From: Lachnospiraceae bacterium
GTDB taxonomy: Bacteria > Bacillota > Clostridia > Lachnospirales > Lachnospiraceae
Direction of reading: 5' to 3'
Length of the DNA stretch: 36,862 bases
Assembly: GCA_017449745.1 (NCBI GenBank)
Contig: JAFTFD010000142.1
Span: forward strand, 1-36,862
Position numbers and translations under genes: made by a program. A model generated the notes under the pieces. The model was not told the origin of the DNA. It saw only the letters and a list, made by a program, of their open reading frames with translations, and ran no database searches. Shown here in pieces: positions 8,536 to 20,209 of this stretch (the first letter of the stretch is position 1; each line of letters starts with the position of its first letter).

Positions 8536-8651
8536 CAGCTTCTGAGATGGTGGCCGCCTCAATGAGTAGATCCTCTTGATTATACCACCCTCTGGAGCGC
8601 AGGCACAAGTAAACTGCGCTATTTTTGCGCCCATTTTCAGGAGGTGATCTC

Positions 8652-9656
8652 ATGGCGCGCATCGAAAGAACGCCATCCGGCAAATATCGGATTCGCGTTT
8701 ACATCGGAAAAGATGCTGCCGGTAAAAAACACTGGAAGTCTATCACGCATAATGACAAAACGAAACTGAAGCTGATTGCGGCAGAATATGAAGATACCCA
8801 CAAAGAATACATAGAGTACGACACATTTAAAAAAGCCGCAGAGAATTATATCGCGATCCGCAAACCTGTTTTGAGTCCTTACACAATCAAGACCTACCAG
8901 GACACTCTTGATATGCTTTCTGATAAGTATTCATGGTTCTGTGATTCAAGCGTAGACGATATATCCGAAATGTCGCTGCAGAAGCTGATCAATGCACTTG
9001 CCATTGGTGGAAAGTCCTCTAAGTACATCCGAAACATTCATGGATTTATCAGATCTACTATCTCGAACGCAGGCTGTAAAGTGCCGCCAGTCACACTTCC
9101 AGAGAAGAAACGTCCGGATCTTCATGAGCCAACAACCGACGAGATCAAAAAAGTTATTGAAGCTTCAGTCGGAACTGCACTGGAGATCCCGATCCTGCTC
9201 GGCATACACGGCCTGCGCCGCGGCGAGATCTGTGCATTACACTATCCGGAAGACTTCGAGGATAATGTTGCACACATCAGGCGCAGTGCGGTATACCTCG
9301 GAAAAGGCGAACGATTCGAAAAGACTCCGAAGAACCAGCAGTCAGACCGGCTCGTTCCTCTGACGCCTTCTCTGGTGGAAAAAATCGAAAAGCAGGGATA
9401 TGTGGTCCGCTGCGCTCCGCAGACTCTGACCACTTCTTTCAGAAAGCTCCTGGAGAAAAACAAGCTGCCGCTATTTCGTTTCCATGATCTTCGCCACTAT
9501 TTTGCTTCATACCTTCACGAACAAGGATTCACGGATGAAGAAATAATCTCTCTGGGCGGATGGAAAACGGACTATGTCATGAAAAGAGTATATCGATATG
9601 CTTTGGATGACGGTACAAATGGTCGTATGAAAGAGGCAATGGCAAAGCTATTTTAA
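8652..9656 (+). CDS. int: Tyrosine integrase
   Basis: A 334-aa protein. ATG 8652 is preceded by an ideal AGGAGGTGATCTC. Residues 1-40 form an AP2-like arm-binding domain (ARIERTPSGKYRIRVYIG), residues about 55-145 a core-binding SAM-like domain, and the rest the catalytic domain. That domain has Arg189 (HGLRRGEIC), His278/Arg281 (HDLRHYFAS), Trp304 (GGWK) and Tyr314 (KRVYRY). It integrates the phage at a tRNA gene and, with an excisionase, excises it. The attP lies directly downstream with two pairs of direct-repeat arm sites, as expected for an enzyme with an arm-binding domain. Confidence 0.95.
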   Translation: MARIERTPSGKYRIRVYIGKDAAGKKHWKSITHNDKTKLKLIAAEYEDTHKEYIEYDTFKKAAENYIAIRKPVLSPYTIKTYQDTLDMLSDKYSWFCDSSVDDISEMSLQKLINALAIGGKSSKYIRNIHGFIRSTISNAGCKVPPVTLPEKKRPDLHEPTTDEIKKVIEASVGTALEIPILLGIHGLRRGEICALHYPEDFEDNVAHIRRSAVYLGKGERFEKTPKNQQSDRLVPLTPSLVEKIEKQGYVVRCAPQTLTTSFRKLLEKNKLPLFRFHDLRHYFASYLHEQGFTDEEIISLGGWKTDYVMKRVYRYALDDGTNGRMKEAMAKLF

Positions 9657-10035: not shown

Positions 10036-11508
10036 TTATTTCTTCTTAATATATGAAGCTTTTACAAATCCATAGTACTTCCTGGCGATCCTGATGTAAT
10101 ACCATTTGCTCCCGTCCTTTGCCTTGACGGTATCGCATACATCCACCTCGTTTCCTTTGGCCAGCTTTGGCCATGACTTAATTGTCTGGTTCTCTGTGCC
10201 TGCCCACGTCCGGACATTGAGCAGGCTGCAGTTGTACACCACTCCAGTCCACTTCGGCGTCTTAGACGGTGCGGCTGCGTTCGTAGCAGTTGTCGAAGTT
10301 GTTGAACCGGTTGATGAAGTAGTTGATGCAGTTGTTGAGCCAGTTGATGCAGACGAATAACGCGGTTTCGCAAATCCCCGGATATATCCCCATCCTATAT
10401 TGACTGTTCGTTTACCAACAACTCCATTCATATTACCTTCAATGACTGTGAACTGTTTCTTTGCAGTGTTTACGGATTCCACGATACCGATATGGTCCGC
10501 CCATCCCGTGTTCGGCTGCACGCCGTCGTCCCAGTTATAACAAACGATATCCCCGACTGCAGGTGTAACAGATCCATCCTCATTCCAGATGCCGGCAGGT
10601 TTGAATACGTCTTCGATGAACCTCTCTACTCCGCATTCCGTTCCGCCGATCGGATCCACGGTTCCGCAGGCAATGAAAGCTGCAGATACCGTCGTCGCGC
10701 AATAATCATCCGTGTATGTGACCTTGTATCCTCTGGCCCTTGGCGTATAGCTGTTATACAGGTCGATTATATCCTTATGTGTGCCTTCTGCTCTGCTCTT
10801 TCCGATCCATGCGCGCATTACAGCCAGGACGTCTTCTGCTGTGATTCCTGTCTTTTCTACAGCAGTCTTTGCTGCAGTCCGATCTTTTTTCGCGCACATT
10901 GCTTTCCACTGTTCTTTCGTCAGTTTGGAAGTGTTACGGTCCACCTTCCCTCCTGAGTTTGTGTACTGCCAGATCGTCCAGGACTTCCAGTCTCCGATGT
11001 TGTATCGGCTCGGAAATGCCGGCACGTCCCAACTGCTACTGTAATCCGGGTATCCCGCGAACCACAGCGGCACCAGCGCCGCAACATTCGCGCAGTCCGC
11101 GCATCCGGTCGATCCTGTATATAACATCGGATAGATCCCGGCCAGTGCATAAAACGCATTGCAGAAGGCTTTCACCCATGTTGTCGATCTCCACGCTGAA
11201 TTATCATCGGATTCCCAATCGATCGCTGGAATGATATCACCCTTATCCAAATCCGGTTTGATAACCGAATAGAAATATTCCGCCTCCTTCTTCGCGGTCA
11301 GGCCGGTGGCGTAGTGATACGCTGCCAGCAGCTTTCCATCCTTCCTTGCTCTGTCCATCGCGGGACGGTAGTATGACTCCCACTTGTATGCAGACATCCA
11401 CTGCGTCGCCTTAACGATCGCGAAATCAGATTCCTTGTAAGCTTTTTCAGTGACTGCATTGAACGGCCATCCATTATAATGACTGATGTCGATTCCTTTT
11501 AATGACAT
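10036..11508 (-). CDS. Endolysin: GH25 muramidase, CHAP and SH3b domains
   Basis: A 490-aa protein with two catalytic domains. Residues 1-210 are a GH25 lysozyme (GIDISHYNG at 5-13, catalytic DWE at 97-99, WTIWQY near 178), which cuts the glycan. Residues about 225-385 are a CHAP amidase/peptidase (Cys270 in DDYCATTVS, GDIVCYNWDDG, His339 in WADHIGIVE). A Ser/Thr-rich linker (386-412) leads to an SH3b wall-binding domain (about 418-490). There is no signal peptide, so it needs the holin. GGAGG precedes the ATG. A GGGATCC/GGATCCC inverted repeat (11532-11558) lies in its leader. Confidence 0.92.
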   Translation of the reverse strand: MSLKGIDISHYNGWPFNAVTEKAYKESDFAIVKATQWMSAYKWESYYRPAMDRARKDGKLLAAYHYATGLTAKKEAEYFYSVIKPDLDKGDIIPAIDWESDDNSAWRSTTWVKAFCNAFYALAGIYPMLYTGSTGCADCANVAALVPLWFAGYPDYSSSWDVPAFPSRYNIGDWKSWTIWQYTNSGGKVDRNTSKLTKEQWKAMCAKKDRTAAKTAVEKTGITAEDVLAVMRAWIGKSRAEGTHKDIIDLYNSYTPRARGYKVTYTDDYCATTVSAAFIACGTVDPIGGTECGVERFIEDVFKPAGIWNEDGSVTPAVGDIVCYNWDDGVQPNTGWADHIGIVESVNTAKKQFTVIEGNMNGVVGKRTVNIGWGYIRGFAKPRYSSASTGSTTASTTSSTGSTTSTTATNAAAPSKTPKWTGVVYNCSLLNVRTWAGTENQTIKSWPKLAKGNEVDVCDTVKAKDGSKWYYIRIARKYYGFVKASYIKKK

Positions 11509-11577: not shown

Positions 11578-12066
11578 TTACTTCCCGTCGTCTTCCATAT
11601 TCGCTGCGGGTATAATGCCGGCCAGCTGGTACTTCTGCAGCTCGGCCTGTACAATCAGGTACTTCGCCTTCAGTTCGTCGTAGCTGTCGTTCTGGATGCT
11701 GTTATGTACGTTGTTCACAAAATTCTTCAGGAACTTTGGCAACGGCACGCCCATTTTATCCAGATTCTCAATGATTGAAAGGCACTCCATCAGCAGAATA
11801 TACAGGCTGATGGCTTTCAATATGTATGGTGGCAACTGCATCCCTGTCGTGAACAGAATCCCCATCAGGATGATCAGAATCTCTCCCACCTTCTTAACGA
11901 GGCCTGCACGCATTTTCGCCGATTCAAAATTCTTCTGCACAAACCATGCTGCCAGAAAGCCTGTGACGATGTCGATCGCCATCATGGCACATGGTAAAAT
12001 CATGATCCATTTGTAACTGGCAAAGTGTACCTTCGCCAGCAGATCCATCAGTGTAGCTGTCTGCAT
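11578..12066 (-). CDS. Holin
   Basis: A 162-aa protein; start ATG 12066 follows a GGAGG site, which rejects longer readings. Three to four hydrophobic segments are seen: about residues 15-40 (WIMILPCAMMAIDIVTGFLAAW), 60-80 (ILIILMGILFTTGM) and 85-105. The sequence pattern, with a DIVTGFLAAW block and a charged cytoplasmic C-terminus (LKFLKNFVNN and following), matches the phage holin / toxin-secretion family. It would form the membrane lesion that releases the endolysin encoded 69 bp downstream. Confidence 0.85.
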   Translation of the reverse strand: MQTATLMDLLAKVHFASYKWIMILPCAMMAIDIVTGFLAAWFVQKNFESAKMRAGLVKKVGEILIILMGILFTTGMQLPPYILKAISLYILLMECLSIIENLDKMGVPLPKFLKNFVNNVHNSIQNDSYDELKAKYLIVQAELQKYQLAGIIPAANMEDDGK

Positions 12067-12067
12067 T

Positions 12068-12250
12068 TCATATTCCTCCGTCAATCTTTTCGATTTTATT
12101 TGCCAGCTCGTATACTTCCAGTTCGAAATCGTCCCCCGCACAGTCGGCCAGACCGTTCTGTGCGAGGATCGAATACAATCGATCGATCAGGTTCGCTTCT
12201 CTTCTGACGATATCCACCAGTTCGGTGACTGTCTCATAATTTGTTTCCAT
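12068..12250 (-). CDS. Small helical protein between RT and holin, 60 aa
   Basis: A 60-aa acidic protein with heptad-like helices (TNYETVTELVDIVRREANLI and ELEVYELANKIEKI) and no membrane segment. AGAGGATTAAAG precedes the ATG, and the gene overlaps the 3' end of the reverse transcriptase gene by 17 nt and stops 1 nt before the holin ATG. Its position next to the RT makes a DGR accessory role possible, but known Avd proteins are about twice as long, and small helical proteins are also usual ahead of holins. Function unknown. Confidence 0.65.
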   Translation of the reverse strand: METNYETVTELVDIVRREANLIDRLYSILAQNGLADCAGDDFELEVYELANKIEKIDGGI

Positions 12251-13304
12251 CTTTAATCCTCTTTCTGTTTGCTCTGATGATGTTCTTCAGACGTTTTGCT
12301 TTGATGTCATCGAAATATTTCTTCCTGATGTTTACTCCGCTGCAATGTTTCAGCTGCCCGACTCTTGATAACAGGCCTGCCGCTTCTCTCACTGACAATG
12401 TTTTTCCTGTTTCGATCTTCTTTTTCACCCTCCTGCATTGTCGGACAAGCTTCAAATAATTTCGCTTCCGCAGAAGGGTGTATCCGTGAAAGAACCGATA
12501 ACCCACGAAATCGACGCCTCTGTCGTCCACCCTGAATACCTGCCAGTTCTTTTTCAGCTCCAGACCTAATGAGCCGAGATGTTTCGCGACTGCCCTGATC
12601 GCCTTGTGCAGCTTCTTCTTGTTCGGGCCTATCAGGACGAGATCGTCCATGTTCCGGACGTAATACTTTACTCCGTCGCATGTAGTGATCATTTGATCCA
12701 GAGATTCCAGAAATACATTCGCAAGCCACTGGTTCAGATAGAATCCGATCGTCAGTCCGGCTCCGTCAGAAGTGATGATCTTGCGGATTAATCCGAGGAA
12801 CTTTTCGTCCTTTATCTTTCTTCGAAGGACATCCATCATCTTCTCGTGGCTGATATTCGGATAATAATGCCTGATATCCATCTTCGTGCAATATTTCGAT
12901 CCTTTGACATCTTTCATTGCCTTTTTCATATATTTGATCGCATGCATATTTCCGCGTCCCGGGATCGATGCGCAGCTGTGTGCGTACATGCCGCGCATGA
13001 AGATCGGTCTGGCCACTTCCACAATCAGGCGATGTATGATTCCATCCGGATAATACGGCACGACTCCGATCGTTCTCTTTTTAACTGAACATGTATCCAG
13101 TATCGTGATGTGTCTCGGATCCGTCGGAACGTATGTCCCGCATTTCAGAATCTCATACACTTTATCTGTGTATTTCTCTACGTCGCTTAGTACCTTTTTA
13201 ACATCGTGCCTCTTCCGCTTCCCTTTCGAGCCTTCTATAATGACCTTCCGGATCAGATTTCTGTCCAGCATTTTCTCACATAGATGTCCGATTCTTTTCG
13301 GCAT
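12234..13304 (-). CDS. DGR reverse transcriptase
   Basis: A 356-aa reverse transcriptase. Motif A is KMDIRHYYPN (Asp143), motif B is LTIGFYLNQWLANVFL (187-200), motif C is NMDD (218-221), and motif E-like DFVGYRFF follows. Motif B aligns with the DGR-specific IGxxxSQ box, but with Asn191 in place of Ser, and motif C has Asn rather than Tyr before MDD. There is no intron maturase or endonuclease domain. It should copy the TR RNA with errors at adenines so that cDNA replaces the VR. AAGGAG precedes the ATG. The TR lies 117 bp upstream on the same strand, and the target gene just beyond. Confidence 0.92.
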   Translation of the reverse strand: MPKRIGHLCEKMLDRNLIRKVIIEGSKGKRKRHDVKKVLSDVEKYTDKVYEILKCGTYVPTDPRHITILDTCSVKKRTIGVVPYYPDGIIHRLIVEVARPIFMRGMYAHSCASIPGRGNMHAIKYMKKAMKDVKGSKYCTKMDIRHYYPNISHEKMMDVLRRKIKDEKFLGLIRKIITSDGAGLTIGFYLNQWLANVFLESLDQMITTCDGVKYYVRNMDDLVLIGPNKKKLHKAIRAVAKHLGSLGLELKKNWQVFRVDDRGVDFVGYRFFHGYTLLRKRNYLKLVRQCRRVKKKIETGKTLSVREAAGLLSRVGQLKHCSGVNIRKKYFDDIKAKRLKNIIRANRKRIKDGNKL

Positions 13305-13420
13305 TGTTTCTCCTTGTTCGCCTCAGAGCTTTTCGAGAATAACCTACTAGGCCCTGCCCTATGCGGCGATATTTTTGCCAAGTGGCAAGGAATTACTGCG
13401 TCACCCAGATAAATTGACAA

Positions 13421-13557
13421 GGTGGCGGGAGCCATAGTTCGCGTTGGTGTTCGACGCCGTGTTGTTCGCGTTGACGTAGAAGAATCCATAGTTATCGTTG
13501 TCGTTATAGTTGCCGCCCACGCGCGCGACGTAGGTGTCGGTGTTCGAGTTGACGCGG
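13421..13557 (-). repeat. DGR template repeat (TR)
   Basis: About 137 bp aligned without gaps to 13688-13824 (offset 267). Read in the target gene's frame it has 12 AAC codons (as in GGNYNDNDNYGFFYVNAN), the codon that adenine mutagenesis can diversify most widely without making stops. Of 38 adenines on this strand, 18 differ in VR (12 A to G, 6 A to T); of 99 other bases, one differs (13523, C to T on the coding strand). Confidence 0.95.
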
Positions 13558-13646
13558 CACCGGATCCAGCCGTGGCTCAACGACGCAGTAATCCCCGAGT
13601 TGACAGTTACATTGTTTTCCCGGAAGGCACCGGATTGCCTCTACTT

Positions 13647-13666
13647 CCGGGGGATGACTCCCCCGG
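13647..13666. promoter_or_regulatory. DGR hairpin/cruciform downstream of VR
   Basis: A perfect inverted repeat: CCGGGGGA, 4-nt loop, TCCCCCGG (8-bp GC-rich stem). It starts 7 bp after the adhesin stop codon and about 21 bp beyond VR. An 8-bp stem with a 4-nt loop just downstream of VR is required for efficient retrohoming in the Bordetella phage DGR. The coding-strand loop is GTCA, not the GRNA described there. A terminator is the alternative, but no T-tract follows. Confidence 0.75.
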
Positions 13667-13673
13667 TCCCCCT

Positions 13674-16600
13674 TCAGGGTATGTAAAGGAGGCGGGAGCC
13701 ATAGCCCGCGCTGGTGCCCGACGCCGTGTAGTACGCGTAGACGTAGAAGAATCCATAGTAATCGTAGTCGCTATAGCTGCCGCCCACGCACGCGACGCAG
13801 GTGCCGGCGTTCGAGCCGACGCGGTCTGTGACATATGTCGTATAATCCGATCCGGATGCCGTATCCGGAATAAACGCCCACGGTGTATCTGCGCTGTATC
13901 CAAATCCCTGTATCGCTCCGGATGACGGCAGCGTGATTCCCGTGTTTGCCAGATCGTTCGTCGTGCCTGTGTATCCGGTATCGCTTACGCCTGCGTATAC
14001 CGCTCTGGATGATGCAATGAATCCGTCGATATTATCAAGTACGTTGCTGAATGGATCCTCGATCCATCGATACTGATTGTGCGCGCCTGTTGTTTTGATT
14101 GTGTGGTATGCGGCGCCGGTTGTTCCGCCCATTGTTCCGACAGATCTCGTGTTCCATCCCTTTCCGAGTGCATCCTGTGAATAGAATGTCGCAAACTCGA
14201 TCAGGTAGAGCATCTGGATCGCGGACCACGATGCAAGATCCATCATGTACCAGTTACTGCCCTTGTTGTGGCTGTATGTGCGGAAGTTGCCCTGTGTCGT
14301 GCTTGCCAGTGGTGCGATTCCGCCTTTTGTGAATACCTCCGTTGAATCTCCTCCGGTGTGGAATCGTCCGACGTACCTTCCGGATCCCGGATGCTTCTGG
14401 TATCCCGTTTTCTCTGTCGGCGAAATCGCCCACAGCCACTTATTGTTCGTAGTGTCTTTGATCGCCGTATACCAGAATTCCGGAATGTACACGACCGTGT
14501 CATACAGCGTTTCATCGAACCCGGAATCATCCTGCGAATATGATATCTCGCCATTAATGACGTTGTAGCGTTTCATGCCGGCCCACGGCTGGATATTGTC
14601 GAACGGCGACGAACCGCTGCCGCTCACTGACGTTGCCGGTGTCGGATCTGTGAACGATGCTGCAAGTCCCACCCTCGTGACGGCCGGACTCGAATTTGTA
14701 TACGTCCATTCGACGCCGTATGCATTGGTCACGTCGGTCGAACTCGGAGCGTCCGCTTTGAACGCAGCGTACACATCCATGTTCGACTGAATATTTGTCA
14801 GGACTGCATTCGCAGTATGCGCTCCGTTCGATATCGCCCATCCAAGGAACTCCATGCCCTTGCCGCTCGGATCGACCGGAACTGCTCCGTCGTATACGGC
14901 CTCGCTTCCCTGCTGAACGGACTTCGTCTGCATTAGTGTTGTTCCGTTGTAGAATCTGACCTGATATATCGGCAGATATGTCGCCGTATATGTCTGGTTC
15001 CCTGTGACATTTGCAATCGCCGGGTTCCACCCTGTTGCTGTCTGCCCCTGATACGTCGGCGTGGATCCGTTGTATTCCGGTCTTGCGCCGTACGGCACAT
15101 TCGTGTCTGTCTCCAGTGTGGTTGCGTCTGCATTATTCCATGTGATCGTGTATGTTCTGACCGTTCTGGAGTATGCAGCGTACACCGTTCTGTCTTCCGT
15201 TACGTTCTGGATACATGATGCATCTGCAGTCTGCGCGTCCATCTGTGTATTCCATCCGACCGCTGTGAATGTATACTGGTCCGTCTGTGATCTTGACGGT
15301 ACAGACGGTATCGCGCTCTGCGGGACGCCGTTGTAACATGTGATCGCTGCCACTGTAGATGATCCGTCCCATGTCTTCAGCGTTAATGTCGTCTCGAGGT
15401 AGTCAGCATCGTAGTTGATGTACGGATATCTCGATTCAAATTCTGCTTTCTGTGCGCCGGTCAATGCGGGTACGTGAATTGTTCCGCTGACCTGTGCCTG
15501 TTCGACATTGCCGCCGGACTCGTCCAGGCCTTTCATCGTGTCCAGAAGATCCAGCAATCCATCAATCTCAGCCGCATCAGTGCATTCCCAGTGTATACCG
15601 ATCAGACGCACCCTTGGGATCTGTGTCGCACTGACCGTCAGGCCTCTCAGGATTGCCTTTTCATCGACCGCTGTGCTGACGTTTTCCAGACGTAAGGTTG
15701 AGATACCTGAGTAATCGTTTCCTTCTACCGCAAACGAAGTGATTGCCGGCTGATTCATAATCGTCAGATTTCTGATCGTGTTCGGCAGATGCAGCGTCTT
15801 CAGGACGCCGCCGTTCGGCAGCGTAATACCCTGAATCTTCGTGCCTTCCATGTATACGTGTTCGATGATCGAACATCCGGAGATATCGACCGTCGTCTGT
15901 GTATGGCCTGTCATGGATGTGTCTCCCAGACCGGAACAGCCTCTTGCATCGATCGTCTTTAACAGGACGTTCGCACCGAACGTCAGCGCATACAGGTTTG
16001 TATTCTCGTATTCTGAATCAGAGTCGCCGATCTTCAGTGCCTGCAGTCGTGTAGCATTACTGATGTCGATCTGGCCAACCTTCAGTGGTGCCAGATCTCC
16101 GATCTGCGCCAGCTGCGACGAGCTGTAGACCGTGACGATGTTGCCGTTCATGCTGGCGTATGGACAGTGCAGCGTGACCGGATAGTTTCTCGGCGCGCGC
16201 TCCTGTGTGATCGTCGCATCCCATGCGATCGTTGCATAGATGTCTGCGTACGGTGTGAGCGTGATATCTGCAGCTGCATACGGCCTCAAGAATATCGTGT
16301 CGTTTCTGGCATCACCCGCAATATACTTGGAGTCAATATATCTGAAACGATTGTACAGCCACCATTTCCGCTGCTCTGCCTTGGATCCCAACAGCATCGC
16401 CAGATAGTTTGCGCTGCTCTCGACAAACGGTTTGATATATTTGAATTCAGCATCCTCGTTAAAGATCGCTTCAGACCATTTCGCCTGATGCTCTTCAAAT
16501 GCCTGCTCGACTGCCTCGTAGGAGAAATTCCCCCCGGATCGGAGCGTCCGGTACATTTCGGCCAGCTCCTGACCGAATGCCGCCCGGATGTTCTTCCATA

Positions 16601-16754
16601 CGACGGAGTCCTGACCGTTGAAGATATTCTCTCCACCGGTCTGATGATCGATGTCTTCCAGCTCATAGCCGAATACCATCTGGCCGTCGTTGTTGATACC
16701 GATCGCCGTATCCATATCGTACGGCAGCCATACTATTTTCTTGTGCATGCTCAT
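13674..16754 (-). CDS. Diversified adhesin: CotH C-half, LRR, InlB repeats, CLec tip
   Basis: A 1026-aa protein. Residues 1-150 continue a CotH-kinase-like domain (LPYDMDTAIGINNDGQMVF, then NGQDSVVWKN, then EDAEFKYIKP). Residues about 205-400 are leucine-rich-type repeats (ISNATRLQALKIG, TIDARGCSGLGD). Residues about 440-665 hold three InlB/Flg_new-like repeats (YTITWNNADATTLETD, ATGWNPAI, FLGWAISNG). Residues about 680-1026 form a C-type-lectin-like domain ending in SRLLYIP, and the VR is at its end. It is probably the receptor-binding tip of the tail. The ATG overlaps the upstream stop as ATGA, with GGAGGTGG 10 nt before it. Confidence 0.88.
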   Translation of the reverse strand: MSMHKKIVWLPYDMDTAIGINNDGQMVFGYELEDIDHQTGGENIFNGQDSVVWKNIRAAFGQELAEMYRTLRSGGNFSYEAVEQAFEEHQAKWSEAIFNEDAEFKYIKPFVESSANYLAMLLGSKAEQRKWWLYNRFRYIDSKYIAGDARNDTIFLRPYAAADITLTPYADIYATIAWDATITQERAPRNYPVTLHCPYASMNGNIVTVYSSSQLAQIGDLAPLKVGQIDISNATRLQALKIGDSDSEYENTNLYALTFGANVLLKTIDARGCSGLGDTSMTGHTQTTVDISGCSIIEHVYMEGTKIQGITLPNGGVLKTLHLPNTIRNLTIMNQPAITSFAVEGNDYSGISTLRLENVSTAVDEKAILRGLTVSATQIPRVRLIGIHWECTDAAEIDGLLDLLDTMKGLDESGGNVEQAQVSGTIHVPALTGAQKAEFESRYPYINYDADYLETTLTLKTWDGSSTVAAITCYNGVPQSAIPSVPSRSQTDQYTFTAVGWNTQMDAQTADASCIQNVTEDRTVYAAYSRTVRTYTITWNNADATTLETDTNVPYGARPEYNGSTPTYQGQTATGWNPAIANVTGNQTYTATYLPIYQVRFYNGTTLMQTKSVQQGSEAVYDGAVPVDPSGKGMEFLGWAISNGAHTANAVLTNIQSNMDVYAAFKADAPSSTDVTNAYGVEWTYTNSSPAVTRVGLAASFTDPTPATSVSGSGSSPFDNIQPWAGMKRYNVINGEISYSQDDSGFDETLYDTVVYIPEFWYTAIKDTTNNKWLWAISPTEKTGYQKHPGSGRYVGRFHTGGDSTEVFTKGGIAPLASTTQGNFRTYSHNKGSNWYMMDLASWSAIQMLYLIEFATFYSQDALGKGWNTRSVGTMGGTTGAAYHTIKTTGAHNQYRWIEDPFSNVLDNIDGFIASSRAVYAGVSDTGYTGTTNDLANTGITLPSSGAIQGFGYSADTPWAFIPDTASGSDYTTYVTDRVGSNAGTCVACVGGSYSDYDYYGFFYVYAYYTASGTSAGYGSRLLYIP
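13688..13824 (-). repeat. DGR variable repeat (VR)
   Basis: Encodes residues about 977-1023 of the 1026-aa adhesin. Eleven of the 12 TR AAC codons are changed here (five to Tyr, three to Gly, three to Ser), and TR His, Tyr, Asp and Thr codons are also altered at adenines. Constant residues such as GFFYV and YGSR are kept, as expected for a C-type-lectin scaffold with a diversified surface. Confidence 0.95.
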
Positions 16755-19700
16755 GAATTAGCCACCTCCGATCCGATGAATGACGGGAATGCGTTCTTGG
16801 CTCTGCTGTCCACCATGAGGAACAGCTCTGTGAACAGGTAGTAGAACAGCGCACTCTGCAGCTCCATGTAATCACCTGCTTCGGCCTTGAATTTCGCCAG
16901 ACGGTATGCCGCCGTGTCGTTCGTGTACGTGGTGCCGTCGTATGTGACCGGCTCGGCCAGTGCATTGCCCGTAGCCGCCTCCGTGTCCGTCTGGACGACC
17001 CATGCAGCGAAGGTCTGCAGCTGCTCCGGATCCTGATACGGCGGATCTGTATCCGGGAATCGAGCCTCGAAATCGGACAGCCACGTCGTACCGGAATAGT
17101 CGTCTGTCTTCCACAGGACATAGTCGCCGGCATTGTTCAGCATTTCCCACGATTCATCCGGTGTAGCGAACCCGAACACATCCTCAGTACTCTTGTCGTT
17201 GTTGAAGTTATACTTCCCGAGGAATGAGATTTCTCCCAGTCCAGTGTCGTTCCAGAAGATCAGGATCGGGAATCCGTCTATACCCTGCCTTACCTTGCTG
17301 TTTGCCACCTGTGCCGGTGTCTTATACGGGCATACACGATCATACAGCCGTACCAGTTCGACGTTGTTTGCCCCTTCCGAGGATGCAAAGTCAGCCTTCA
17401 TGCAGAAGGTATCTACCGGTATTGCATCGTTGTTCATGGCGTACTTCTCAGCAGTGGATCCACTTGCAAGCGTGAATCCGTTCTTGAACTTCATCTTGTA
17501 GTTCTTTCTGGGATAATACTGGGAAGACGTACCCTGTACATCGATCTGGCATCCGGTAAACGTGAAGTTTCTCGACGGCAGCAACGGATTGACGAACGAT
17601 CCGCTGCAGGTCTTCTTGTCGCCTTTTGACTGCGGCAGCTCTGCGGCCTCGATGATCATGTACGGCAGGTCGTACGGCAGATTTGCAATGACGATCTTTC
17701 CGTAAGCGTCGAAAACATTGTTTCGCGCATATCGGTCGAGCATCAGTGTGCCGTCCTGTGTGTCTGCAATCCAGTTGTCGACGATCTGGAATCTTGTCAG
17801 GTCATTGTCGTAGATGCGGATGTTGTACAGATCAATCGTGCAGTCGGAAGATCCGACGCTGATATTAACCGGTGTCGCCTGTGAAAAGTCATCATCTGCA
17901 GGATACTGCACGACGCCTGATGCGATACCGTTGATATAGATGTACAGCAGACGGTTCTCCGTACGCTTCTGGGCCACAAATGCGATCCTGATGTGTTCAT
18001 CCTCTTTGTACTGCGTGCTGATCTGCGACTGCTCTGACTGCAGCAATGCTTTCTGCGCTGTGATGGAGAATCCTCTGTCACCGCTCATGCAGGACATAAT
18101 TACTGCGTCGTAATTCAACACATCCCGTGTAGCAAACTCCAGCTCGATCGTCTTTCCGGTCGATCGGAAGTCTGCTGCAAACGGCTGATACGGAATGCTG
18201 ATTCTCGCATCACCACTAACTCGCATGACGGCAATACCTTCTTTGTCCTTCACCCATCCGTTCGATGCCCAGTTGAATCCTGTGAGGGCAGCTGTGATCT
18301 TTGAGGCGCCTGATCCATATTCCCACGTCTCACGGTCGACATCTGCGTTCGACCGGCCCTGAGATGTCAGATACAGCTTCAGATCCTCTGTGACCGGCTC
18401 CACATCAATTTCGGATTCTGTGACGGTCGTTGTGATCGTCTTCGATGTGCCGCCGCTCTCGATCCTGAATGTCAGCGTGCCGACATCATTGGCTTTGTAT
18501 GTGTAAGACTGCTCCGTCCTGTCAACCGTCTGCGTTGATACCAGCGTATTGTTCACGTAGATCTTGGCTTCTGCTGTCAGGTTGTTCGGATCATATACCA
18601 TGAACGGAAGACCTATGTTCGTATACTGTGCTTCAGTCGTATTGTGGTACGAGCTCGTGATGATGACCGTGTCGACCAGTTCAACAACCGAAATGAACTC
18701 GTAGTACAGCTCGTTCGATCTGACTGTCTCGTTGTTAATCGTCGCTTCGAAATAGACCAGCAGCGAATGCCCGCCGTGCGACTGTGCCGGGATCGTGTAC
18801 GTGATCTGCTGACCTGAAATCGGTGTGACCTGCGTACCGACTTCTCTGCCATCGACAACAAAATGCACCGTCTTCTGGACTTCTCCGGTCGGTACATATC
18901 TGAACGAAATAACACTGTCGTATATCTGTGTAGAATCAAAACTCGATGCGATCGTCAGTTCAATCGCAGTGACGTTGAAGGTCGTCGTATGCCCCTGATC
19001 GTAGGTATCAGAGATACGCACCTTGACCTTGTTCGTACCCTTGCCAAGATACGGTTTCGAATCAATGGATACGTCGCCCTGTGCGATCTGCTGCGTGGAC
19101 TTCACGACCTCATTGACCGAAATCCTGATCGTGCCGTCTCCGGTCGGCAGTCCGTCCTCAATAGATGACCACCGGAATGACACCGGGCAGGAAGATCCGT
19201 ATGATATTGTCTTCGACAGCCATCCAGAAGTATTATCGACTGTAAGATCTGCGTCGATGACGTCTCCGCCGCCTCCGCCTCCGCCGCCTCCTGCAAGCGG
19301 AATGCCATTCTCTGATCGCTGACCCTTGTATGTCGGGTAAACGTAGTACGTATCAGGATCCTGCTCCAGACCAAGGTCATCAACATCAATCTCGACATTA
19401 TCGAGCTTTCTGATGATCTCCTTCATCTGGTTGTCGATACCGGTCAGTTCGTTCGCAGTGTTATTTGCCGTATCAAGTGCCTCTGCTGCTGTTTGTTCAG
19501 CTCTCGTCTTGATGTCTAGGATCTGCTGCCCTTTCTGTTGAATGGCGGCCATCTCAGACTGATACTGCGTTTCCATGGCCGTCATGTTTTCTTCATGCGC
19601 TTCGGCCATTTCATCAATAGCATCCTGCGTCTTCTGGGCAATGACAGAATCCAGATTCTGGTATGCCCGCTCTGCAGCCTGTGCCGACTGTGCGGCATTC

Positions 19701-20209
19701 TGTTCTGATGTCGATGCGTTCTGCGCAGCCGTCTCGGACCGTGTGGTCAGCGCTGCAATAGCCTCCTGCGCTGCATCGGCCTGCCTTGCTGCCGCAATGA
19801 TTTCATCCGTCCTGTCGATGACATCGATCAGCTCCCGGATTTCTGAATTCGAGATTGTATCTTTATCCAGTGCGGACCGTTCCACATGGATCAGGAACGT
19901 GGCGCTGTTCAGCTCTTTTTCGCCTTTTTTCAGTACCAATTCGAACGCAGCAATACCGGCCGCTGCCGTCATCTGCTGATGTCCTGCTACTGTGACTGTG
20001 CTTCCGGAAAGCGTGCAGTCTGCAGAAAATCCATGCCCGTCTCTCTTTGTGCCGCGGATCTCCGCTGTCGTTCCGGACTGGATCTCAAACGTGCCGGCCC
20101 GCGAAATCAGATTAAATACCAGCGTAAAATCCGAATCGTACTGTTTTAACCCGAATTCAAGAGGCAGGCCGCCGTGCGACATGTCCAGGTCAAATTCATG
20201 TGTGATCAT
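16751..20209 (-). CDS. Baseplate/adhesin protein: BppU-like N-terminus, CotH N-half
   Basis: An 1152-aa protein. Residues 1-120 resemble the BppU N-terminal domain that plugs into the baseplate (FDLDMSHGGLPLEFGLKQYDSD). Residues about 120-280 are an Ala/Gln-rich coiled coil, then a 9-Gly hinge near residue 315, beta/Ig-like domains (about 325-590), a LamG-like jelly roll (about 590-810), and the first part of a CotH-kinase-like domain (YYPRKNYKMKFKNGF, then FYYLFTELFLMVDSRAKN at the end). It stops inside that domain, and the next gene carries the rest. It likely anchors the adhesin to the tail tip. Confidence 0.85.
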   Translation of the reverse strand: MITHEFDLDMSHGGLPLEFGLKQYDSDFTLVFNLISRAGTFEIQSGTTAEIRGTKRDGHGFSADCTLSGSTVTVAGHQQMTAAAGIAAFELVLKKGEKELNSATFLIHVERSALDKDTISNSEIRELIDVIDRTDEIIAAARQADAAQEAIAALTTRSETAAQNASTSEQNAAQSAQAAERAYQNLDSVIAQKTQDAIDEMAEAHEENMTAMETQYQSEMAAIQQKGQQILDIKTRAEQTAAEALDTANNTANELTGIDNQMKEIIRKLDNVEIDVDDLGLEQDPDTYYVYPTYKGQRSENGIPLAGGGGGGGGGDVIDADLTVDNTSGWLSKTISYGSSCPVSFRWSSIEDGLPTGDGTIRISVNEVVKSTQQIAQGDVSIDSKPYLGKGTNKVKVRISDTYDQGHTTTFNVTAIELTIASSFDSTQIYDSVISFRYVPTGEVQKTVHFVVDGREVGTQVTPISGQQITYTIPAQSHGGHSLLVYFEATINNETVRSNELYYEFISVVELVDTVIITSSYHNTTEAQYTNIGLPFMVYDPNNLTAEAKIYVNNTLVSTQTVDRTEQSYTYKANDVGTLTFRIESGGTSKTITTTVTESEIDVEPVTEDLKLYLTSQGRSNADVDRETWEYGSGASKITAALTGFNWASNGWVKDKEGIAVMRVSGDARISIPYQPFAADFRSTGKTIELEFATRDVLNYDAVIMSCMSGDRGFSITAQKALLQSEQSQISTQYKEDEHIRIAFVAQKRTENRLLYIYINGIASGVVQYPADDDFSQATPVNISVGSSDCTIDLYNIRIYDNDLTRFQIVDNWIADTQDGTLMLDRYARNNVFDAYGKIVIANLPYDLPYMIIEAAELPQSKGDKKTCSGSFVNPLLPSRNFTFTGCQIDVQGTSSQYYPRKNYKMKFKNGFTLASGSTAEKYAMNNDAIPVDTFCMKADFASSEGANNVELVRLYDRVCPYKTPAQVANSKVRQGIDGFPILIFWNDTGLGEISFLGKYNFNNDKSTEDVFGFATPDESWEMLNNAGDYVLWKTDDYSGTTWLSDFEARFPDTDPPYQDPEQLQTFAAWVVQTDTEAATGNALAEPVTYDGTTYTNDTAAYRLAKFKAEAGDYMELQSALFYYLFTELFLMVDSRAKNAFPSFIGSEVANS

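What the first reader, a model, noticed from the sequence alone, without database searches (positions are those of the whole stretch)
13421..13824. Active-looking DGR: TR and VR differ almost only at template adenines
TR and VR align without gaps over about 137 bp. On the coding strand 18 of 19 substitutions are at the 38 TR adenines, against one at the other 99 positions. Eleven of 12 AAC codons are altered. This pattern is diagnostic of adenine-specific mutagenic retrohoming. With the RT gene next to it, it shows that this phage has diversified its tail tip.
Basis: partly seen in the sequence, partly recalled or inferred. Interest (0 to 1): 0.92.

Follow-up and report, generated by a model that had tools for sequence, protein, structure and literature searches.

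The report
Phage protein-diversifying retroelement with unusual enzyme
A bacterial virus carries a genuine self-diversifying cassette that rewrites the end of one of its tail proteins, and the enzyme that does it belongs to a branch whose catalytic signature differs from the textbook one and which seems to write a narrower set of changes.

Summary
TR (13419-13557) and VR (13686-13824, end of a 1026-aa tail gene, minus strand) align without gaps over 139 nt. Of 19 mismatches, 18 fall on the 38 template adenines and one on the 101 other positions; 11 of 12 AAC codons are altered. It is a diversity-generating retroelement (DGR) on a temperate siphophage contig: target, hairpin, TR, structured RNA, RT. 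As a DGR it is ordinary.

The RT is not. It has NMDD instead of YxDD and IGFYLNQ instead of [IVL]GxxxSQ. Its clade of 23 RTs with TR/VR pairs shares both changes. The sister clade has CQ, often with YxDN or HxDN. Surveys I could read found both aspartates invariant, or took non-SQ variants for probable inactivation or sequencing errors (PMC3521204, PMC4244168). Yet two phages of this clade differ at 16 VR sites, all template adenines, and at 0 of 1170 sites around them: such RTs work. The clade rarely writes A to C at the second A of AAC (1 of 120 substitutions, against 56 of 244 in SQ/YxDD RTs); the cause is unproven. Covariation places TR inside a structured RNA whose TR-to-RT part is Rfam RT-18. 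Present activity of this copy is not shown.

The parts
13686..13824 (-). Variable repeat (VR), end of the target gene; the stop codon ends 12 nt beyond it
13419..13557 (-). Template repeat (TR), between target gene and RT gene
13647..13666 (-). Hairpin/cruciform element after VR: 8-bp stem CCGGGGGA/TCCCCCGG, loop GTCA, 19 nt after VR end
13582..13595 (-). 5' arm of the long-range helix that closes around TR (GGGATTACTGCGTC)
13389..13402 (-). 3' arm of the same helix (GACGCAGTAATTCC); 13 Watson-Crick and 1 G-U pair with the 5' arm, counted on the sequence
13310..13387 (-). Rfam RT-18 RNA (RF03021), 75.6 bits (gathering 41.3), between TR and RT; includes a small hairpin 13376-13387 and further covarying helices
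12234..13304 (-). DGR reverse transcriptase, 356 aa
   Evidence: RVT_1 6.3e-14, PHROG 1423 3.2e-98, tree
12729..12749 (-). RT motif 4, IGFYLNQ (SQ signature changed to NQ), residues 186-192
12642..12653 (-). RT catalytic motif NMDD (YxDD changed to NxDD), residues 218-221
13674..16754 (-). Target gene, 1026 aa tail protein; C-terminal part related to DGR variable proteins
16751..20209 (-). Upstream large gene, 1152 aa, overlapping the target gene by ATGA (context)
12068..12250 (-). 60-aa ORF overlapping the RT stop; no Pfam hit over cut-off, no PHROG or NCBIfam match; not shown to belong to the DGR
11578..12141 (-). Holin (context)
10036..11508 (-). Endolysin (context)
8625..9656 (+). Phage integrase (context: temperate phage)

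Best explanation
This is a phage DGR of a branch with a noncanonical RT active site. The TR is transcribed inside a structured RNA; its flanks pair and its 3' part (RT-18) lies against the RT gene (structure supported by covariation; transcription inferred). The RT copies TR into cDNA, misincorporating opposite adenines (inferred from the TR/VR pattern), and the cDNA replaces VR next to a GC-rich hairpin (hairpin seen; the step is inferred from BPP-1). The outcome is a new set of residues in the C-terminal part of a tail protein, probably its ligand-binding face (inferred). The RT carries N in place of Y in YxDD and N in place of S in the SQ signature, both fixed in its clade and compatible with function, and the clade writes almost no A-to-C at the second A of AAC. 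An altered RT active site is one plausible cause of that skew; this is not shown.
For: TR/VR adenine bias. RT gene and phage neighbours. 145 of 178 RT loci gave a TR/VR candidate near the RT; 141 were kept after I dropped four, and in all 141 the template is the downstream copy. Same TR, different VR: in eight TR-identical pairs of loci 110 of 116 VR differences lie at TR adenines (sum of the pairs). Checked without any adenine rule and with flanks, inside this clade L042/L203 differ at 16 of 34 TR-adenine sites of VR, 0 of 98 other VR sites, 0 of 132 TR sites and 0 of 1170 sites elsewhere; L048/L056 at 15 of 29, 3 of 96, 0 of 125 and 2 of 1174. Hairpin in 23 of 23 NQ-clade loci. RNA: 28 pairs on 30 sequences, 94.8% of cells paired against 82.0% in shuffles, 133 cells with both sides changed against 37.9, 0 of 500 shuffles as high. 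N191 and N218 invariant in 13 aligned clade members. Skew: 1 of 120 A-to-C at the second A of AAC; 18 of 19 NQ-clade loci with at least 4 such changes have none, against 11 of 24 YxDD loci.
Against: No reads, RNA or enzyme data: current activity of this copy is unproven. No Avd gene was found beside it. The hairpin loop GTCA does not fit the published GRNA consensus. In the MAFFT register of A6 the window forms only 20 of 28 pairs; seven of the eight misses are in the TR-closing helix, whose arms pair fully when compared directly. The full 369-nt RNA does not fold better than shuffles. The A-to-C skew varies among SQ clades (0 of 3 up to 7 of 18), is modest against the nearest relatives (p 0.024 and 0.022), C is the rarest substitution in DGRs generally (PMC3521204, passages), and the window's own 0 of 18 is weak alone (about 0.02).
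Confidence: 0.93

Rival explanations
1. The cassette is a relic: it diversified the tail in the past, but the NxDD/NQ enzyme of this copy no longer works.
For: The catalytic tyrosine and the SQ serine are replaced; PMC4244168 (passages) reads non-SQ variants as probably inactivation or sequencing errors; one static VR is seen.
Against: The RT frame is intact, both residues are shared by a clade of 23, and two relatives with the same motifs are identical over 1170 flanking sites and over TR yet differ at 16 VR sites, all template adenines.
Confidence: 0.07
2. The rarity of A-to-C in this clade comes from selection on the target protein, host repair or nucleotide pools, or clade drift, not from the RT motifs.
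For: Single evolutionary origin of the NQ change; SQ clades differ among themselves; host effects cannot be separated; five S-type RTs with N at the tyrosine position (one of them N-DN) show 3 of 17, so that residue alone does not explain it.
Against: Serine is reached by AGC 57 times and by TCC 0 times here, against 77 and 16 in Y-type relatives (p 5e-4); protein-level selection does not distinguish them, though codon preference might. A clade drawn from the spread of nine others would give 1 of 120 or fewer with probability 0.0012.
Confidence: 0.45
3. Two copies of a coding segment diverged by ordinary mutation or gene conversion and merely look adenine-biased.
For: Only one pair in the window.
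Against: Fisher p 2.9e-11; RT alongside; the same layout in relatives; ordinary divergence would put changes on all bases.
Confidence: 0.005

Closest known systems
Bordetella phage BPP-1 DGR (the best sequence match in the PDB, 8ub7 series 'Reverse transcriptase' is taken to be its bRT from recall)
   Same: Adenine-specific TR to VR change; VR at the 3' end of a tail gene; 8-bp GC-rich hairpin with 4-nt loop after VR (PMC3240598, passages); structured RNA between TR and RT (PMC12875486, passages).
   Different: The PDB chain has YMDD and IGSLTSQ, this RT NMDD and IGFYLNQ; no Avd gene seen; loop GTCA instead of GRNA; the 5' flank of TR is the avd coding end in BPP-1 (PMC12875486) and has no recognised gene here.
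DGRs of other Bacillota phages: Butyrivibrio phage Closwp03, Faecalibacterium phage FP_Epona, Lactobacillus phage LBR48
   Same: RT 31-39% identical; target, TR, RT in the same order before the lysis genes in the first two.
   Different: Closwp03 and Epona have YMDD and SQ; LBR48 has NIDD with SQ; Epona carries the Rfam RT-4 RNA and no RT-18 hit.
CQ sister clade of phage RTs (IMG/VR contigs, e.g. L233, L239, L221)
   Same: Sister branch with joint support 100; hairpin in 12 of 14 loci; members in the RNA alignment.
   Different: C instead of N in motif 4, and the second catalytic Asp replaced by Asn in 17 of 25 rows.
Rfam RT-18 (RF03021), RT-17 and RT-4 RNAs
   Same: Window 13310-13387 matches RT-18 at 75.6 bits; RT-17 scores below its cut-off.
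   Different: The match covers only the TR-to-RT part; the TR-closing helix lies outside it.

Membership tests
Diversity-generating retroelement | TR/VR pair with changes confined to template adenines | tested here: met
   18 of 19 mismatches at 38 adenines
Diversity-generating retroelement | RT gene next to TR, RT placed among RTs that have TR/VR pairs | tested here: met
Diversity-generating retroelement | (I/V/L)GxxxSQ in RT motif 4 (diagnostic in older surveys, not a functional definition) | tested here: not met
   IGFYLNQ; S replaced by N
Diversity-generating retroelement | YxDD (or FxDD) catalytic motif (usual in older surveys, not a functional definition) | tested here: not met
   NMDD; both aspartates kept
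Diversity-generating retroelement | GC-rich 7-10 bp hairpin with 4-nt loop 4-34 nt after VR (PMC3240598) | tested here: met
   8 bp, 4 nt, 19 nt after VR; stem of at least 7 in 23 of 23 NQ, 12 of 14 CQ, 69 of 118 other loci
Diversity-generating retroelement | GRNA loop (phage DGR consensus of PMC3240598) | tested here: not met
   GTCA; 0 of 68 four-base loops, as my script delimits them, in 155 loci fit GRNA
Diversity-generating retroelement | Avd accessory protein | tested here: inconclusive
   No Avd-like Pfam, PHROG or NCBIfam match in the ORFs scanned near the RT; no positive control run. PMC8934634 (passage): 62% of DGR RTs in complete genomes co-occur with Avd_like, so absence is not excluding
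[quoted passage not shown]
   Only PDB match is TaqVP 5VF4 at E 0.042; hhalign 97.2% with Epona/Closwp03 targets, few sequences; 0 of 15 members with a Pfam hit; structure prediction switched off
Diversity-generating retroelement | Mutagenic retrohoming in living cells | not testable with these tools
   Needs reads or an assay; relatives show same TR with different VR
Rfam RT-18 RNA | Score over the curated gathering cut-off | tested here: met
   75.6 against 41.3 bits

The most novel reading that the evidence does not exclude
In this clade the DGR RT active site itself has been re-tuned. Replacement of the SQ serine (to N, or to C in the sister clade), accompanied by NxDD or YxDN, gives a working retroelement with a different mutation alphabet: dG is almost never placed opposite the second A of AAC, so Thr, Ala, Pro and TCC-Ser nearly drop out of the residues reached from AAC. 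This would be a natural test of the 2012 proposal that motif 4 sets DGR fidelity.
Probability: 0.4. Interest if true: 0.72.

Novelty: new variant of a known kind. Interest (0 to 1): 0.5.

Why it matters
DGRs are well known, so the cassette alone is one more member. The RT is the point. Surveys I could read hold SQ and YxDD to be hallmarks of DGR RTs, and one reads departures as probably dead enzymes or sequencing errors. Screens keyed to those motifs would miss or discard such elements. If the enzyme causes the skew, natural NQ, CQ and SQ enzymes form a ready set for finding what makes a DGR RT misread adenine. The covariation also suggests that Rfam families such as RT-18 and RT-4 are parts of DGR template RNAs.

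Tried and rejected
Zero A-to-C in the window alone as a finding: rejected as weak (0 of 18; chance about 0.02 from the pooled share; 14 of 124 loci have none, about 8 expected). The skew was pursued only at clade level.

N at the tyrosine position as sole cause of the skew: five S-type RTs with that N (one of them N-DN) give 3 of 17, not different from YxDD (p 0.77). CQ/DN gives 3 of 38 (p 0.033) and CQ/DD 1 of 10 (p 0.46). The first A of AAC shows no significant difference (12 of 125 against 45 of 291, p 0.12).

Whole-RNA stability: the 369-nt RNA does not fold better than shuffles (z -0.57), so covariation and not energy is the evidence.

Near relatives by DNA: none in 'phages'. The first single-protein scans found nothing. 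An exact 18-mer of TR/VR hit one contig without a visible DGR in the stretch read (L196). No relative with the same TR as the window was found in these searches.

Extra VRs for this TR in the host assembly: none.

60-aa ORF after the RT as an Avd substitute: a first-round search gave only L053 at 0.0045; an iterated one gave many short ORFs, some next to the RT and others hundreds of bases away, so drift is possible. Left open.

Structure prediction of RT and target: switched off.

Rows dropped before counts: L165, L166, L016 and L171 were removed from the TR/VR set by hand (141 of 145 kept, 124 nonredundant). Of 178 RT loci, 33 gave no pair; I did not check why. One search used 102 loci that I picked; one search repeats the count on all 155 unique pairs. 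One search used 118 of 124. groups rows into ten clades that I read off the tree; 18 of 155 rows lie outside them, and one search uses nine of the ten. One search uses 30 of the 38 loci prepared. The pair finder rewards adenine mismatches and punishes others, so adenine-specificity counts over loci are biased upward; it does not favour G, T or C among them. The window pair was found first by a search without that rule, and nine pairs of relatives were recounted without it (in three of these nine the flanks differ by 57 to 137 sites, in the other six by 0 to 5).

Full report
Observation. A repeat search without any adenine rule finds the two copies at 13419-13557 and 13686-13824. On the coding strand the ungapped 139-nt alignment has 19 mismatches, 18 of them at the 38 adenines of the first copy and one at 101 other positions (Fisher p 2.9e-11). 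Eleven of 12 AAC codons differ. The host assembly holds no further copy. The finding as written is correct.

Context. The 36,862-base contig is a temperate siphophage: integrase, terminase, portal, maturation protease, capsid, major tail, tape measure, Dit, Prophage_tail protein, two further large genes, RT, holin and endolysin. The assembly that holds it has 393 contigs and 4.16 Mb. The target is the second of those two large genes; VR is its 3' end and the stop codon ends 12 nt beyond it. Its C-terminal part matches PHROG 5302 'tail protein'. As a profile of 15 relatives it has one PDB match, 5VF4 at E 0.042, which PMC6328139 (passages) identifies as the C-type-lectin DGR protein TaqVP. Profile comparison with the Epona and Closwp03 targets gives 97.2% probability, on few sequences. 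None of the 15 members has a Pfam match. The fold is likely but not proven.

Hairpin. After VR lies CCGGGGGA-GTCA-TCCCCCGG, 19 nt beyond its end. PMC3240598 (passages) describes stems of 7-10 bp, 4-nt loops of consensus GRNA, 4-34 nt after VR, and shows that stem structure and loop matter for homing in BPP-1. Stem, loop size and distance fit; the loop sequence does not. In 155 unique TR/VR loci a stem of at least 7 occurs in 23 of 23 NQ-clade loci, 12 of 14 CQ loci and 69 of 118 others, and 0 of 68 four-base loops, as my script delimits them, fit GRNA. On 102 loci that I picked, an in-gene control segment gave 1 against 76.

RNA. Rfam RT-18 (RF03021) matches 13310-13387 at 75.6 bits (cut-off 41.3). 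At gathering thresholds 16 of 20 related loci have an RT-n hit, 14 RT-18 and 2 RT-4. The flanks of TR are complementary: GGGATTACTGCGTC (13595-13582) with GACGCAGTAATTCC (13402-13389). In 61 of 118 loci a locus's own arms pair better than all 12 swapped partners, against about 9 expected; in the other 57 they do not. On an alignment of 30 loci 21 of 28 pairs show changes on both sides; 133 cells have such changes against 37.9 in shuffles, and sliding the partners removes most of the signal. The structure was derived from the same alignment, which favours it over the slid versions. In that alignment the window forms 20 of 28 pairs; seven of the eight misses are in the TR-closing helix, whose arms pair fully when compared directly, so a register shift of its 3' arm is likely. 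So TR sits in the loop of a long-range helix, followed by a small hairpin and the rest of the RT-18 structure. This agrees with the BPP-1 picture given in PMC12875486 (passages): the spacer recruits the enzyme and primes cDNA synthesis, and a motif in the upstream flank stops it. The 2025 structural paper on that RNA is not held and was not read. A search for RT-17 and RT-18 with DGR terms found no held paper; the paper that I recall as the source of the RT-n families is not held either.

RT. The best PDB match by sequence is the 8ub7 series, 'Reverse transcriptase', which I take from recall to be bRT of BPP-1. On that alignment, by my count, N191 and N218 face S186 of TSQ and Y213 of YMDD. 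Of 218 RT rows, some near-copies, 140 are SQ with YxDD, 33 are NQ with NxDD, 25 are CQ (17 of these with DN instead of DD) and 20 are minor types. A tree of 155 RTs puts the 23 NQ rows together (SH-aLRT 96); their sister is the set of 14 CQ rows plus one long-branched S row (L252), support 86; joint support is 100. PMC3521204 (passages, section 10) reports both aspartates 100% conserved, Tyr replaced by Phe in 14%, and SQ almost exclusive in its 155 elements, and proposes that the SQ motif sets fidelity. PMC4244168 (passages) treats five non-SQ variants as probable inactivation or sequencing errors. A search for NMDD with reverse transcriptase found 0 papers in the library. I could not check later DGR catalogues for these motifs. 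PMC2148107 (abstract) shows that an Asp-to-Asn change in Ty1 RT keeps in vitro activity though transposition is lost, so DN motifs need not mean a dead enzyme.

Activity in relatives. Among the 141 kept pairs, eight TR-identical pairs of loci have different VRs (differences at TR adenines 3 of 3, 15 of 18, 16 of 16, 16 of 16, 14 of 16, 19 of 20, 11 of 11, 16 of 16). The other same-TR comparisons there had identical VRs. Because the pair finder favours adenine changes, these eight and L042/L203 were recounted on plain alignments with flanks. L042/L203, in the NQ clade, differ at 16 of 34 TR-adenine sites of VR, 0 of 98 other VR sites, and 0 of 1170 sites elsewhere. L048/L056, also in the clade, differ at 15 of 29, 3 of 96 and 2 of 1174. 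Other near relatives, one of them (L030) from the window's host genus, show the trend with small TR differences. NxDD RTs of this clade are therefore functional.

Mutation alphabet. At the second A of AAC, A-to-C makes up 1 of 120 substitutions in the NQ clade, 4 of 48 in CQ and 56 of 244 in SQ/YxDD-type RTs (p 7e-10 for NQ against the last). Without near-copies of one cluster it is 1 of 84. A locus-label permutation on an earlier set of 112 loci gives 5e-5, but it ignores kinship. Serine codons argue against protein selection: TCC to AGC 0:57 against 16:77 (p 5e-4). Against the nearest clades the difference is modest: p 0.024 (CQ), 0.022 (nearest SQ clade), 0.006 (both). SQ clades range from 0 of 3 to 7 of 18, and a clade drawn from the spread of nine clades would be this low with probability 0.0012. 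PMC12875486 (passages) reports that in bRT the NAC context raises G misincorporation, i.e. A-to-C; the NQ clade lacks this at AAC, while at other NAC sites it does not differ from SQ/YxDD (3 of 70 against 10 of 169). PMC3521204 (passages) found C the rarest substitution overall and argued against a strong enzymatic bias. Since NQ arose once on this tree, host, target and other RT changes remain possible causes.

Verdict. The RT branch is a variant not described in the surveys I could read, and the restricted alphabet is a testable lead. I put the DGR reading at 0.93 overall, and the reading that RT changes cause the skew at 0.4.

Noticed in passing
L032 5195-5322 and 5967-6094 (own genome contig C333); L006 535-644 and 819-928 (contig C231): Two further DGR-like TR/VR pairs in the same assembly, 13 of 13 and 18 of 18 mismatches at template adenines, each near an RT.
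   Followed up: partly
window 16751-16754: A domain that looks CotH-kinase-like by eye (recalled, no Pfam hit) is split over two overlapping ORFs; in relative L030 the split lies earlier in the domain.
   Followed up: partly
L221, L222, L233, L235, L239, L242, L247, L250: DGR RTs of the sister clade with the second catalytic Asp replaced by Asn (YxDN, HxDN, NxDN), yet with adenine-biased TR/VR pairs.
   Followed up: partly
L014 4855-4971; L022 2688-2805: Rfam RT-4 RNA lies between TR and RT in these DGRs, as RT-18 does in the window's relatives; the RT-n families may be DGR template RNAs more widely.
   Followed up: partly
L176 3402-3860 and 3891-4286: Two consecutive small ORFs share a similar C-terminal pattern (AF.AGS.SRL), perhaps two targets served by one TR.
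   Followed up: no
window 12068-12250: 60-aa ORF overlapping the RT stop; similar small ORFs may lie near other RTs.
   Followed up: partly
L030 7408-7547: In this relative 8 of the 12 TR/VR mismatches sit in the last 35 nt of the 140-nt VR, as if a short cDNA had been used last.
   Followed up: no
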